From Cellulomonas sp. C5510 (lineage in GTDB: Bacteria > Actinomycetota > Actinomycetes > Actinomycetales > Cellulomonadaceae): a stretch of 64,000 nt of DNA. Below, piece by piece: positions 55,019 through 62,855 of this stretch; within the stretch, counting starts at the first letter, position 1, and each line of letters starts with the position of its first letter. The notes beneath the pieces are model-generated. The model was not told where the DNA came from. It saw only the letters and a program-made list of their open reading frames with translations, and searched no databases. Both the position numbers and the translations under genes were made by a program. The stretch lies in the NCBI RefSeq assembly GCF_019797765.1, contig NZ_CP081862.1, positions 2,480,001-2,544,000 of the forward strand, written 5' to 3'.

Positions 55019-55024
55019 ACCCTA
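55019..55024 (-). promoter_or_regulatory. -10 element, (near-)leaderless promoter of dapB
   Basis: TAGGGT on the minus strand with 8 nt to the GTG at 55010. It overlaps the last codon region of the ATP-grasp gene (stop at 55022). Confidence 0.5.
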
Positions 55025-56380
55025 GTGCGACCGCCGCGCACCCGGCGACGGCTCCGAGGGCCCGCTGAGTACCCCGGTGAACCGCGCGCCGAAGTCGTTG
55101 TTCACGACCGCACCCGCATCCGCGGTCAGACCTCGCACCAGGCACCCGGCGTAGCCTCCGCCGATGCTGAAGGGGCCCCAGTTGAGGACGACGTCCTCCT
55201 CCGCGGCACCGTCGAAGGAACGGAAGCGCTCGGTCGCGGGCCGGACCCGCTGCTGGACGACGTACCCGTGACCGACGGCGTCGTCGACGAGCCGGTCCCA
55301 CGCCTGCTGCGGACGCGTCCAGCCCGCGACGACCCCACGGCCGCCGAACCCCGCGGCGGGCTTCAGGACCAGGTCGACCCGGCGTCGGTGCACGTCGGGC
55401 AGCAGGTCCACCCGCGACCCGTCGGCGGCCGTGGTCATCCCGGGGCGCAGCACCCTGGTCCAGGGGATCACCCGCTCGGCGAGACGCCGCTGGCCCGCGG
55501 TGAAGCGGTCGTGGAGGAGCGGGTCGCTGAGCAGCGCGAGGTTCGCCTTGCTCATCGCGAGCTCCGAGTGGATGCCGCTGAGCACGCTGACCTTGCCGGC
55601 GCGCGCAGCGGCACCGACGTCGCGGAGCGCGGGCAGCACCGCGGGGTCGGAGGCCACCTCCGGGAGGCCGAACATGCGGAACACGACGTCGACGCCGCGG
55701 GTGCCGACCGCGAGCCTGCCCGTGCGGGTCCGGGTGAGCTGCCCCAGGTGACCGCCGACCGCGTCGAGACCCGCCGCCCGGAGCCCGCGCACCACCGAGG
55801 GGAAGCAGTCCTCGCCCGGGCGCATCGACGCGGGCGCCCCGAGTACCGCGACCACCGGGTCGGTCCGGCCCGCGCTCGTCCGGATCGCCGCGACCATCCG
55901 AGCCCGGGTGCCGGGGTATCCCAGGGCGTGCTCAGCGGCGAAGCCGGCCACCTCCGGCTCGCGCAGGGCACGGCGGACGATCTCGTCCACCGTCCACCCG
56001 CCGATGCGGTGGCCGACGTTGCACTCGAGCACCTGCCACGTCCCGTCGGGCTGCCGGTAGAGGTCGGCCCGGCCCATGAGCTCGGTCGGGACACCCGTCT
56101 CGGCCGCCAGCGCGTCGAGCACGACGTCCTCGGCGCCCACAGCCCGCAGGTAGGCGGTCAGGTCGCCGTCGTACAGCCTGTTCGGCAGCTCCTGCAGCAG
56201 TACGAGGAGCTCCTGCGCCACAGCGGAGAGCTCGGCCGTCTCCGTCCCGGACAGCAGCGCGGGTCGTGAGAGCAGCGGGGCGCCCTCCCGGAACCCACCC
56301 TCGTCCTGGAGACGCCGCAGCTCGCGGACCGGCCCGCACGCAGCGAGGAACCCGCGGGTGAGGCTGTTCTCGAACCGCAT
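55022..56380 (-). CDS. Circularly permuted ATP-grasp ligase-like protein
   Basis: A 452-residue protein. [20 protein letters not shown] (K340) is the ATP-binding lysine and Gly-rich loop of permuted ATP-grasp enzymes, and GYVVQQRV the adenine-binding strand. The metal- and phosphate-binding part lies before it: [12 protein letters not shown] (104-115) and [12 protein letters not shown] (117-128). The layout resembles glutathionylspermidine-synthase/DUF404-407-type carboxylate-amine ligases. It probably joins a carboxylate to an amine. The ATG shares its A with the upstream SDR stop (TGATG). It is the last gene of the pterin cluster, 11 bp before dapB. Substrates are unknown. Confidence 0.72.
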
Positions 56381-57150
56381 CACCGCCCCCGCGCGGCCGA
56401 GGTCCGGTGCTCGACCGGGCGCGGCGGCGTCGGTCGTCGCCACACGCGTGGCGAGTCGGGCTCCGGGAGGGACAGGAGCAGCCGGTCCGGGTGGGCCCAA
56501 CCCGGGTCGAGGACGTCGGCGACGAAGCGGCCCACCTCGTCCGCGGTCAGCCACCCCGGCTGCGGCGCGAAGCCGAACCAGTGGTCCAGGATCGGCGCGA
56601 GCAGCGTCACCTCGTGGCACCGGATCGCCGTACCTGCGTACTCCGCCGCGAGCACGCGAAGGAGCATCCGCAAGCCGGCGCCGGTCACCGACATCGGGGC
56701 AGCGAACGTCATCGGCTCGTTCGCGGTGATCCCCGCCAGCGTGACGTAGACGCCGCCGCTGTCGGCGAGCACCGGGGCGAACGTGCGAGCCACCACGAAG
56801 TGCGGTGTGAGGTTGTCGAAGACCAGGCGGTCCCAGGTCGCGCGGTCCATCTCGTCGATCCGCGCCTCGCGTTCGAACGTACCCAGCGACGCGATCACCG
56901 AGTCGAGCCGACCGTGCCGCTCCAGCACGAGATCGCGCAACGACTCCGCCTCGGCGGTGTCGGCGAGGTCCGCCCGGACGAGGTGCAGCTCGCCGGGTCC
57001 ACGCGCGTCGAGCCGGGCCCCGAGCGCGCTCAGCCGGCTGAGGGACCGGCTGGGCGCGATCACGGTCGCCCCACGGTCGAGCAGCGTCTGGGCGATGCAG
57101 CTCCCGGCGTGTCCCGCGCCGCCGGCCACCAACGCGACGGTGCCCTTCAT
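56380..57150 (-). CDS. Short-chain dehydrogenase/reductase-fold protein lacking the catalytic triad
   Basis: A 256-residue SDR-fold protein (MKGTVALVAGGAGHAGSCIA). The nucleotide-binding Gly motif is AGGAGHAG at 9-16, variant in its central Gly. DLADTAEAES and the helix-4 Asn (FDNLTPHF) are kept. The usual Ser-Tyr-Lys are missing: the strand-5 Ser region reads YVTLAGITA and the YxxxK site reads MSVTG (153-157). Pteridine reductase and FolM are SDR enzymes, so a pterin-related ancestor is plausible, but this protein may be a non-catalytic or mechanistically altered member. Its ATG overlaps the folE stop by 4 nt. Confidence 0.8.
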   Translation of the reverse strand: MKGTVALVAGGAGHAGSCIAQTLLDRGATVIAPSRSLSRLSALGARLDARGPGELHLVRADLADTAEAESLRDLVLERHGRLDSVIASLGTFEREARIDEMDRATWDRLVFDNLTPHFVVARTFAPVLADSGGVYVTLAGITANEPMTFAAPMSVTGAGLRMLLRVLAAEYAGTAIRCHEVTLLAPILDHWFGFAPQPGWLTADEVGRFVADVLDPGWAHPDRLLLSLPEPDSPRVWRRPTPPRPVEHRTSAARGR

Positions 57151-61531: not shown

Positions 61532-61556
61532 CGTGACGGCGAAGCACATTGTCACG
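61532..61556. repeat. Inverted repeat CGTGAC-N13-GTCACG
   Basis: Perfect 6-bp arms 27 bp before the MFS start codon; placed to block or activate exporter transcription. Confidence 0.5.
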
Positions 61557-61583
61557 AATGTCCGGTATCGCCGAGAGGGTGTC

Positions 61584-62855
61584 ATGCTCAGAACAGGACC
61601 CCGATCCGCCCGCGGTCCCCGGCGTGCGGAACACGACCTGCCCACCCTCCTCGGGGCGGACGGGACGGCGCAGATCGGGATGCAGCTGGCGGGCTTCACG
61701 CTGCCGCTCCTCGCGCTCTACGCAGCGGACGCCAGCGCCTGGCAGATCGGGATGCTCACGGCGTGCCTCACCGCGCCGACGGTCCTGCTGGGGCTTCCCG
61801 TCGGAGCCTGGGTCGACCGGTGGCCCGCGCGACCCGTGATCGTCGTCGGCACCCTCGGGCGCGCGCTGCTCCTCGCCTCCCTCGCCGTCGGTGCCTGGTC
61901 CGGGATCGGCGTGGCCGCCCTGTGCCTCGCCGCGCTGGCCGTCGGCACCTGCGGCGTGTTCGTCGACATCGCGTACCTCAGCCTCATCCCCTCCTTGGTG
62001 CCGCGGCACCGCCTCATGGTGGCGAACGGTCGCCTTCAGGCGGTCCGCAGCGCCTCCTACGCCTCAGGTCCGGCCCTCGGCGGCATCCTCGTCCAGAGCC
62101 TGGGGGCGGGCTCCACGCTGCTCGCCGCCGCGACGGCGCAGTCCCTCGCGGCGCTGGGCACCGGCCGCATCCGCCACGACCGGCCCCGCACGACCCACCG
62201 GGACGAGCGTGATCTCCTGCGGGAGGTCCTGACCGGGATGCGGGTCGTCACGGCAAGCAGGGTGCTGCGGCAGGTCCTGCTCGCCTCGGCGCTCCTCGGC
62301 TTCTTCATCGGGCTCGGGATGCCGATGACGACGGTGCTGCTCGTCCGCGATCTCGGACTGCCCAGCAGCACCGTCGGCCTGGTGCTGGCCGCGAGCGGCG
62401 TCGGCGGTGTCGTCGGGAACCTGGTCGTCGGGTCGGTCGCGAGGCGGCACGGGACCACGCGGACCGTCGTCGGAGGAGCGGCGCTGCTCGCGTTCCCGGC
62501 TGCGCTCGTCCCCCTGGCGGGACCAGGCCCCTGGCTCGCCGCACCGGTCCTCGGGCTGCTGCTCGGGGCCGTGGGGCGCGGGATCTACAACGTCGCGGTG
62601 CTGACCGTGCGGCAGAGGCTCACCCCGCACCACATGCTCGGACGCGTGAACGCCAGCATCCAGGTCGTCCTCGGCGGGATGCTGCCGATGAGCAGCGCTG
62701 CGAGCGGCGGCCTTGCGACCATCGTCGGCGCACGTGGCGTGCTGTGGGTCTCGGCGGCCGGTGCCATCGCCTCCGCTCTCTGGGTGGTCGCATCGCCGGT
62801 CGCACGCAACGACCTGGACGAGCACGAGCCGGCACCGACCGACGCGTCACCCTAG
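61584..62855 (+). CDS. MFS exporter of the pterin cluster
   Basis: A 423-residue major facilitator (EntS-like MFS_3 type) with about 12 transmembrane helices. The A-motif-like loops are LPVGAWVDRWPARPVIVVGT and GNLVVGSVARRHGTTRTVVG; VDIAYLSLIPSLVPRHRLM and TPHHMLGRVNAS are typical of this exporter subfamily, which moves siderophores and antibiotics. It is divergent from the six biosynthetic genes and probably secretes their product or gives self-protection (inference). Its stop codon shares CTAG with the convergent AraC-like gene. Confidence 0.88.
   Translation: MLRTGPRSARGPRRAEHDLPTLLGADGTAQIGMQLAGFTLPLLALYAADASAWQIGMLTACLTAPTVLLGLPVGAWVDRWPARPVIVVGTLGRALLLASLAVGAWSGIGVAALCLAALAVGTCGVFVDIAYLSLIPSLVPRHRLMVANGRLQAVRSASYASGPALGGILVQSLGAGSTLLAAATAQSLAALGTGRIRHDRPRTTHRDERDLLREVLTGMRVVTASRVLRQVLLASALLGFFIGLGMPMTTVLLVRDLGLPSSTVGLVLAASGVGGVVGNLVVGSVARRHGTTRTVVGGAALLAFPAALVPLAGPGPWLAAPVLGLLLGAVGRGIYNVAVLTVRQRLTPHHMLGRVNASIQVVLGGMLPMSSAASGGLATIVGARGVLWVSAAGAIASALWVVASPVARNDLDEHEPAPTDASP

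What the first reader, a model, noticed from the sequence alone, without database searches (positions are those of the whole stretch)
55022..62855. Candidate pterin/folate-like conjugate biosynthetic cluster with exporter
Seen: six minus-strand genes with 1-17-nt overlaps (FolC-like, DHPS-like, M20 peptidase, GTP cyclohydrolase I, degenerate SDR, permuted ATP-grasp) and a divergent MFS exporter. Known: GTP cyclohydrolase I starts pterin synthesis, DHPS joins a pterin to an amine, FolC adds amino acids, ATP-grasp enzymes make amide bonds. Inference: the operon makes and exports a pterin-amino acid conjugate, possibly a folate antimetabolite, signal or unusual cofactor, using hydroxymethyl-dihydropterin diphosphate from the housekeeping pathway since folB and folK are absent. 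I do not recognise this combination as a described pathway.
Basis: partly seen in the sequence, partly recalled or inferred. Interest (0 to 1): 0.9.

Follow-up and report, generated by a model that had tools for sequence, protein, structure and literature searches.

The report
Horizontally acquired second folate-like pathway
This bacterium has acquired, as one block, a set of modified copies of vitamin B9 (folate) enzymes plus a likely exporter that probably builds and secretes an unknown folate-like molecule rather than folate itself.

Summary
In detail: six overlapping minus-strand genes (FolC-, DHPS-, M20-, FolE-, SDR- and ATP-grasp-type) and a divergent MFS gene lie at 55022-62855. Separate folE, folP, folB, folK and folC exist elsewhere in the genome, so this is not the housekeeping operon.

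New evidence: (1) the seven genes are one ~7.8 kb insertion; a close congener has the same flanks joined directly, with one copy of the 8-bp sequence that brackets the block here. (2) Streptacidiphilus jiangxiensis has a homologous cluster (FolC, DHPS, FolE, M20, SDR, MFS) plus FolB and another ATP-grasp ligase. (3) The cluster's DHPS keeps the pterin/pyrophosphate residues (10 of 10) but lost the loop-2 Glu, Ser and Arg and the Phe190 equivalent (0 of 10, against 110-112 of 112 relatives). (4) The SDR lost its catalytic residues in both lineages.

Best reading: a specialised pathway that couples hydroxymethyl-dihydropterin to an amine other than p-aminobenzoate, adds amino acids and exports the product. 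The product is unknown; nothing is shown biochemically. Eight searches of open-licence papers listed no description; pepteridine is the nearest analogue.

The parts
60041..61375 (-). FolC-like Mur-type ligase (444 aa)
   Evidence: TIGR01499 277.1 bits; 11-row clade at 100/99 support
59145..60044 (-). DHPS-like pterin-binding enzyme (299 aa) with altered pABA-side residues
   Evidence: TIGR01496 213.6 bits; loop-2 ESTRPG reads VPLYAG, Phe190 equivalent is Leu, pterin/pyrophosphate residues kept; model pLDDT 89.0
57754..59148 (-). M20 metallo-amidohydrolase/peptidase (464 aa)
   Evidence: PF01546 and PF07687; 54% identical to the Streptacidiphilus copy
57147..57770 (-). GTP cyclohydrolase I (FolE paralogue, 207 aa)
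   Evidence: PF01227 191.4 bits; CEHH and CM motifs kept, about 50% identical to the other FolE of the genome
56380..57150 (-). SDR-fold protein lacking the catalytic Ser/Tyr/Lys (256 aa)
   Evidence: PF00106; same loss in the Streptacidiphilus homologue
55022..56380 (-). ATP-grasp ligase of glutathionylspermidine-synthetase type (452 aa)
61584..62855 (+). MFS transporter, presumed exporter (423 aa)
   Evidence: PF07690 144.6 bits; lies inside the inserted block
61376..61583 (.). 208-bp divergent intergenic region, presumably holding both promoters
   Evidence: ORF boundaries; promoters not tested
55018..55025 (.). 8-bp repeat CACCCTAG at the dapB-side end of the block (holds the ATP-grasp stop codon)
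   Evidence: one copy at the congener's empty site
62848..62855 (.). 8-bp repeat CACCCTAG at the HTH_18-side end of the block (holds the MFS stop codon)

Best explanation
A horizontally acquired seven-gene specialised-metabolite cassette that re-uses folate chemistry. FolE opens GTP to dihydroneopterin triphosphate; the genome's other FolB and FolK supply 6-hydroxymethyl-7,8-dihydropterin diphosphate; the DHPS-like enzyme couples that pterin to an amine other than p-aminobenzoate; the FolC-like ligase and the ATP-grasp ligase then form amide bonds to amino acids or amines; the M20 enzyme trims or deprotects; the MFS protein exports the product. The SDR without catalytic residues is a binding or accessory protein of unknown task. 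Shown here: gene content, single-block insertion, recurrence in a relative, kept pterin-site and altered pABA-side residues. Inferred: every reaction, their order, the amine, the amino acids and export.
For: Other copies of folE, folP, folB, folK and folC in the genome. Block inserted precisely between an HTH_18 gene and dapB relative to a close congener. Homologous cluster in S. jiangxiensis: FolC 46%, DHPS 52%, FolE 68%, M20 54%, SDR 40%, MFS 31%, with FolB, an L-amino-acid-ligase-type ATP-grasp and PhyH. L036 (Streptomyces sp. adm13) has PhyH, an adenylation-carrier protein, FolC and a condensation-domain protein. DHPS clade of 10 against 112 relatives: Arg63 equivalent 0/10 v 112/112, Phe190 equivalent 0/10 v 112/112, Asp after the pterin-site Asn replaced by Ser 10/10 v 0/112, while the Asn22, Asp96, Asn115, Asp185, Lys221, Arg255 and His257 equivalents are kept 10/10 (E. 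coli numbering mostly recalled). Loops 1 and 2 form the pABA pocket and the pterin sits in an adjacent preformed pocket (PMC6057106 and PMC10328974, passages). FolC and DHPS clades each form one branch.
Against: No product or assay. Sul2 binds pABA with a Ser as its loop-2 contact (PMC10328974 passages; that Sul loop 2 lacks the STRP residues is recalled), so a changed loop 2 does not exclude pABA; the loop-2 Thr is kept in 4 and the Pro in 5 of 10 clade rows. Only one locus outside the window (L035) was seen with the full gene set; L036 ends too early. FolB and FolK are absent from the window block. FolE relatives at 60-80% identity over the matched part occur in 17 of 25 plasmid records, and the three inspected have no annotated DHPS or FolC nearby, so FolE is not diagnostic. 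The ATP-grasp type differs between the two lineages, and the condensation protein of L036 lacks the usual HHxxxDG motif (it reads SHVTLDH). MFS direction is only inferred.
Confidence: 0.6

Rival explanations
1. Antifolate self-protection island: spare FolE, DHPS and FolC copies insensitive to an antifolate, plus an efflux pump.
For: Three folate-enzyme paralogues plus an MFS in one acquired block; pABA-side residues altered; nearest NCBIfam Sul model is Sul4 at 187 bits.
Against: The Sul4 protein compared keeps the ESTRPG loop; the two-residue insertion that marks Sul1-3 (PMC6335563 passages) is absent, as the DPGxGF region has the length of the relatives'; the Sul4 score is far below its cut-off of 600; M20, ATP-grasp and the SDR are unexplained; relatives carry FolB and PhyH (L035) or PhyH and assembly-line genes (L036).
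Confidence: 0.12
2. An intracellular alternative one-carbon or redox cofactor: a modified folate used at home, not exported.
For: Three core genes are folate-pathway types; methanofuran-type cofactors are a recalled precedent for DHPS-family condensing enzymes (one search gave listings only).
Against: No one-carbon enzyme in the block; the MFS lies within it; the DHPS clade was not found at 1e-70 in the 219 other genomes of the window's family that were searched, which is unlike a core cofactor.
Confidence: 0.12
3. The DHPS-like protein is not a synthase but a FolP2-like protein with another role, and the cluster product is not folate-shaped.
For: The genome's third DHPS-like gene (C1:963565) also lacks most of the STRP motif; in high-GC gram-positives folP2 clusters with other genes, and that of M. 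leprae does not complement an E. coli folP mutant (PMC1971073 passages).
Against: Seven pterin/pyrophosphate residues are kept 10/10, and FolE, FolC and in one relative FolB sit beside it.
Confidence: 0.1
4. A plain folate or dihydropteroate overproduction and export cassette.
For: FolE, DHPS and FolC are folate enzymes; a transporter is present.
Against: pABA-side residues altered in the DHPS clade; FolB and FolK are absent from the block; M20, ATP-grasp and the SDR are unexplained.
Confidence: 0.06

Closest known systems
Pepteridine NRPS-pteridine cluster of Photorhabdus luminescens (PMC5384830; abstract, outline and passages)
   Same: A genomic island with a dedicated GTP cyclohydrolase I that feeds a pterin into a specialised metabolite, with assembly-line parts; the Streptomyces relative of the present cluster (L036) also has an adenylation-carrier protein and a condensation-type protein.
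   Different: [quoted passage not shown] the word dihydropteroate does not occur in that paper's main text. Here a DHPS-like and a FolC-like enzyme are the presumed coupling enzymes.
Housekeeping folate genes (folE-folP-folB-folK, folC)
   Same: Same enzyme families for three steps.
   Different: Other copies at 502-504.5 kb and 2606 kb in this genome; window DHPS 38% and FolC 32% identical to them; loop-2 Glu, Ser and Arg lost.
Sul1-4 sulfonamide-insensitive DHPS
   Same: An acquired extra DHPS with changes on the pABA side.
   Different: No Sul1-3 two-residue insertion; the Sul4 compared keeps the canonical motif.
FolP2 of high-GC gram-positives (PMC1971073 passages)
   Same: DHPS paralogue in a non-folate setting; the genome's own candidate also has an altered loop 2.
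   Different: The candidate FolP2 is a third, separate gene; the window DHPS sits with FolE and FolC and keeps all seven pterin/pyrophosphate residues examined.

Membership tests
Dihydropteroate synthase (folate DHPS) | Overall family profile over its cut-off | tested here: met
   TIGR01496 213.6 bits against 162.6
Dihydropteroate synthase (folate DHPS) | Pterin and pyrophosphate residues (Asn22, Asp96, Asn115, Asp185, Lys221, Arg255, His257 equivalents; recalled) | tested here: met
   kept in 10 of 10 clade members
Dihydropteroate synthase (folate DHPS) | Loop-2 ESTRPG motif and Phe190 equivalent on the pABA side | tested here: not met
   Glu, Ser, Arg and Phe equivalents 0 of 10, against 110, 112, 112 and 112 of 112 relatives; Thr kept in 4 of 10, Pro in 5 of 10
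Dihydropteroate synthase (folate DHPS) | Makes dihydropteroate from pABA | not testable with these tools
   needs an assay or complementation
Sul1-3 resistance DHPS | Two-residue insertion in the DPGxGF region | tested here: not met
   no insertion against 112 relatives in the alignment; signature from PMC6335563 passages
Sul4 | NCBIfam NF033502 over 600 bits | tested here: not met
   187.2 bits
FolC (DHFS/FPGS) | Family profile over cut-off | tested here: met
   TIGR01499 277.1 against 162.65; GKGS loop and the Lys of KAGI kept in 13 of 13 aligned rows
FolC (DHFS/FPGS) | Glutamylates dihydropteroate or folate | not testable with these tools
   Ser of TSPH is Lys and Asn of AHNP is Cys in 11 of 11 clade rows (55 comparison rows: 5 Lys, 0 Cys); the Lys is also in three Chloroflexota loci
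GTP cyclohydrolase I | Family profile and Cys/His motifs of the zinc site (recalled) | tested here: met
   PF01227 191.4 bits, CEHH and CM kept; equivalog TIGR00063 174.1, under its cut-off of 181.6
Classical SDR oxidoreductase | Catalytic Ser-Tyr-Lys (positions recalled) | tested here: not met
   lost in the window and Streptacidiphilus proteins, present in the neighbouring ordinary SDR
Glutathionylspermidine-synthetase-type ATP-grasp | Fold match over nearly the full length | tested here: met
   [not shown]
Pepteridine-type NRPS-pteridine cluster | 6-pyruvoyltetrahydropterin synthase and a carrier/condensation-E2 fusion in the cluster | tested here: not met
   neither among the seven genes of the block; definition from passages of PMC5384830

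The most novel reading that the evidence does not exclude
A previously undescribed class of natural-product pathway that duplicates the folate assembly line (FolE, in one known member FolB, then DHPS and FolC) with the DHPS active site rebuilt for an amine other than pABA, giving an exported folate mimic: a natural antifolate, signal or metallophore found sporadically in at least two actinobacterial families and spread as a compact cassette.
Probability: 0.4. Interest if true: 0.88.

Novelty: new variant of a known kind. Interest (0 to 1): 0.68.

Why it matters
Folate enzymes are classic drug targets, yet no natural product built by re-using DHPS and FolC turned up in the paper searches made here (open-licence library only). 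If the DHPS-like enzyme accepts another amine, it would show how the sulfonamide target can be re-aimed in nature and would open a class of pterin conjugates to genome mining. The acquired seven-gene cassette is small enough to express whole, so the question is directly testable.

Tried and rejected
Housekeeping folate operon: rejected, other copies of folE, folP, folB, folK and folC found; folA and the pABA genes were not searched. Sul-type resistance gene: lowered, see the membership tests. The ATP-grasp gene as a marker: relatives in 18 of 394 class genomes and 5 of 221 family genomes, own genome counted in both; the other loci held, about 4 kb each, show no folate gene of the cluster, so that family alone does not mark the cluster. 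FolC-clade scan: 385 relatives, best 80 loci kept; besides L035, nine loci show only a FolC-DHPS pair (L039, L055, L064, L071, L072, L093, L094, L104, L110), L063 shows FolC, FolE and an SDR spread over 8 kb, and L054 and L058 FolC and an SDR; these were not followed further except L039, whose DHPS is canonical. DHPS profile in a phylum sample: 3 of 396 genomes, of which one is the window's own and the other two have ESTRP. Plasmid search with the DHPS: 5 records, 34-41% identical, two annotated sul4; only one sul4 was compared. Genus of G613: 3 genomes, nothing, no positive control. No Rfam match in 52000-64000 and no PADLOC match of the seven proteins. The Streptacidiphilus side genes (proline racemase, FAD and ferredoxin-type oxidoreductases, TldD-type peptidase, and the acyl/aromatic-lyase genes of L116) were read but not counted as cluster, since only PhyH recurs in the second locus L036. 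The DHPS model was not searched against structures. The statement that nothing was found in print rests on eight searches, of which I saw the listings and opened three of the listed papers in part (PMC5384830, PMC1971073, PMC6335563); subscription papers and most preprints are not held.

Rows left out of counts: the 112 comparison rows are the listed hits after the eight clade hits, out of 1488 hits of which 120 were listed. In one search P0131, P0132, the other FolC of the genome and three Chloroflexota loci were on neither side of the residue count; P0131 and P0132 had been in alignment A1 and in the tree group with the Chloroflexota rows. In one search the G1244 protein and a Streptacidiphilus SDR were translated in wrong frames and were redone.
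Full report

It is not the housekeeping folate operon. The same genome carries folE (C1:501774-502304), folP (502433-503170), folB (503299-503631) and folK (504163-504549) together, and folC at 2606056-2607300; folA and pABA genes were not searched. The window copies differ from these: FolE about 50%, DHPS 38%, FolC 32% identical.

It arrived as one block. Of 40 genus genomes searched with dapB, 39 matched including the window's own, and loci were fetched for 30. 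In the 29 loci other than the window's, none shows a match to any of the seven proteins at 1e-5 in the roughly 3.7 kb held, and 27 have a relative of the window's HTH_18 gene on the upstream side of dapB. In the closest (G471, dapB 98% identical) the HTH_18 match ends at position 1498 and the dapB match begins at 1501; its DNA aligns to the window on both sides of the block (94.1% over 2293 bases, 92.7% over 1160 bases). The block runs from 55026 to 62847, flanked by CACCCTAG at 55018-55025 and 62848-62855, which is present once at the empty site. The repeat may be a target duplication or junction microhomology; no transposase gene lies among the block's genes. The stop codons of the ATP-grasp and MFS genes lie within the repeats, so the block holds these seven genes and no others. 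Block GC is 73.5% against 76.3% for the rest of the window.

It recurs elsewhere. A scan of one genome per species with the FolC-clade alignment kept 80 of 385 confirmed loci; tblastn of the seven proteins showed one with most of the cluster, Streptacidiphilus jiangxiensis L035: FolC 46%, DHPS 52%, FolE 68%, M20 54%, SDR 40%, MFS 31%. Twelve other loci of that scan had two or three of the gene types, mostly FolC-DHPS pairs (see Tried and rejected). Pfam on the neighbours in L035 adds a FolB (17006-17542), an ordinary SDR, an ATP-grasp of L-amino-acid-ligase type (best solved match BL00235), PhyH, a proline-racemase-family protein, FAD/ferredoxin-type oxidoreductases and a TldD-type protein. 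That genome has two FolB but one FolK. L036, a 5.3-kb contig of Streptomyces sp. adm13, carries PhyH (69% identical to the Streptacidiphilus one), an adenylation-carrier protein, FolC and a condensation-domain protein whose HHxxxDG motif reads SHVTLDH. Protein searches list further DHPS and FolC clade members named Streptomyces, Kitasatospora or unnamed; DHPS, FolC and ATP-grasp hits share longest-contig lengths (9345: all three; 8111: DHPS and ATP-grasp; 341389: DHPS and FolC of one named strain), which suggests linkage. The distribution is sporadic: at 1e-70, 1 of 394 sampled genomes of the family that holds S. jiangxiensis for the FolC clade, and 1 of 220 genomes of the window's family for the DHPS clade, the window's own.

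Where it came from. The FolC clade (11 rows) is one branch at 100/99 support; its neighbour branch has ten rows, of which four are labelled Chloroflexota (midpoint root). In a Chloroflexota locus FolC and a canonical DHPS are neighbours (L039). A transferred folC-folP pair that then changed function fits; this is inference.

What changed in the DHPS. Against 112 listed relatives (of 1488 hits), the ten clade members all lack the loop-2 Glu, Ser and Arg of ESTRPG (relatives 110, 112 and 112 of 112) and the Phe190 equivalent (112 of 112); the loop-2 Thr is kept in 4 of 10 and the Pro in 5 of 10. The Asp after the pterin-site Asn is Ser (10/10), the Met of the MH motif is Thr (10/10), and the Pro after the Asp185 equivalent is Tyr, Phe or Cys. 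The residues recalled as pterin and pyrophosphate ligands are kept 10 of 10. According to passages of PMC6057106 and PMC10328974, loops 1 and 2 order around pyrophosphate to form the pABA pocket while the pterin is held in an adjacent preformed pocket. The simplest reading is that the pterin half-reaction is kept and the amine changed. A caution: in Sul2 the loop-2 residue near the pABA amine is a Ser and pABA is still bound, so this is strong but not conclusive.

The other enzymes. FolE keeps its CEHH and CM motifs. M20 is conserved through its recalled metal-site motifs. The SDR lost its catalytic residues in both lineages while a C-terminal PDSPRVW motif is shared, so it is kept for something other than ordinary SDR chemistry. 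FolC keeps the GKGS loop and the KAGI lysine; the Asn of AHNP is Cys in 11 of 11 clade rows and in 0 of 55 comparison rows.

Model. FolE and borrowed FolB/FolK give hydroxymethyl-dihydropterin diphosphate; the DHPS-like enzyme couples it to an unknown amine; FolC-like and ATP-grasp ligases add amino acids or amines; M20 trims; MFS exports. All reactions are inferred. Rivals, with probabilities, are an antifolate-protection island (0.12), a home-use cofactor (0.12), a non-synthase DHPS role (0.10) and plain folate export (0.06).

Known comparisons. Pepteridine in Photorhabdus is the one described NRPS-pteridine island found (PMC5384830; listing, abstract and outline, passages), built on 6-pyruvoyltetrahydropterin synthase rather than DHPS/FolC. 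The eight paper searches aimed at such clusters listed no paper whose title or abstract start describes a DHPS- and FolC-containing natural-product cluster, within the open-licence library only.

Noticed in passing
G000:C1:963565-964323 (L003): A third DHPS-like gene with an altered loop 2 (GGVRAGRG), probably the actinobacterial FolP2 whose role is still open.
   Followed up: partly
plasmid records (L118, L119, L120): FolE relatives at 60-80% identity over the matched part are in 17 of 25 plasmid records hit (mostly Rhodococcus); the three inspected show no annotated DHPS or FolC nearby: a second actinobacterial FolE subfamily with unclear use.
   Followed up: partly
loci L010, L019-L022, L029: Relatives of the ATP-grasp protein lie near MFS genes in other actinobacteria, without the cluster's folate genes in the short loci: possibly other small ligase-exporter cassettes.
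   Followed up: no
L116:4974-16876: Upstream of the Streptacidiphilus cluster are an aromatic amino acid lyase, ketosynthase, acyl-CoA dehydrogenase, thioesterase and adenylation genes; whether they belong to the same product is unknown.
   Followed up: no
window 51571-53613 +: A long ORF whose translation reads like a GGDEF-EAL-type signalling protein (by eye, not by a family search).
   Followed up: no
window 62852-63772 -: HTH_18 (AraC-type) protein below the Pfam cut-off, beside dapB in most congeners examined; it is the older neighbour of dapB, not part of the acquired block.
   Followed up: yes
L037, L038, L039: Chloroflexota FolC proteins share the TKPH (for TSPH) change with the cluster FolC, so that change is not specific to the cluster.
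   Followed up: partly
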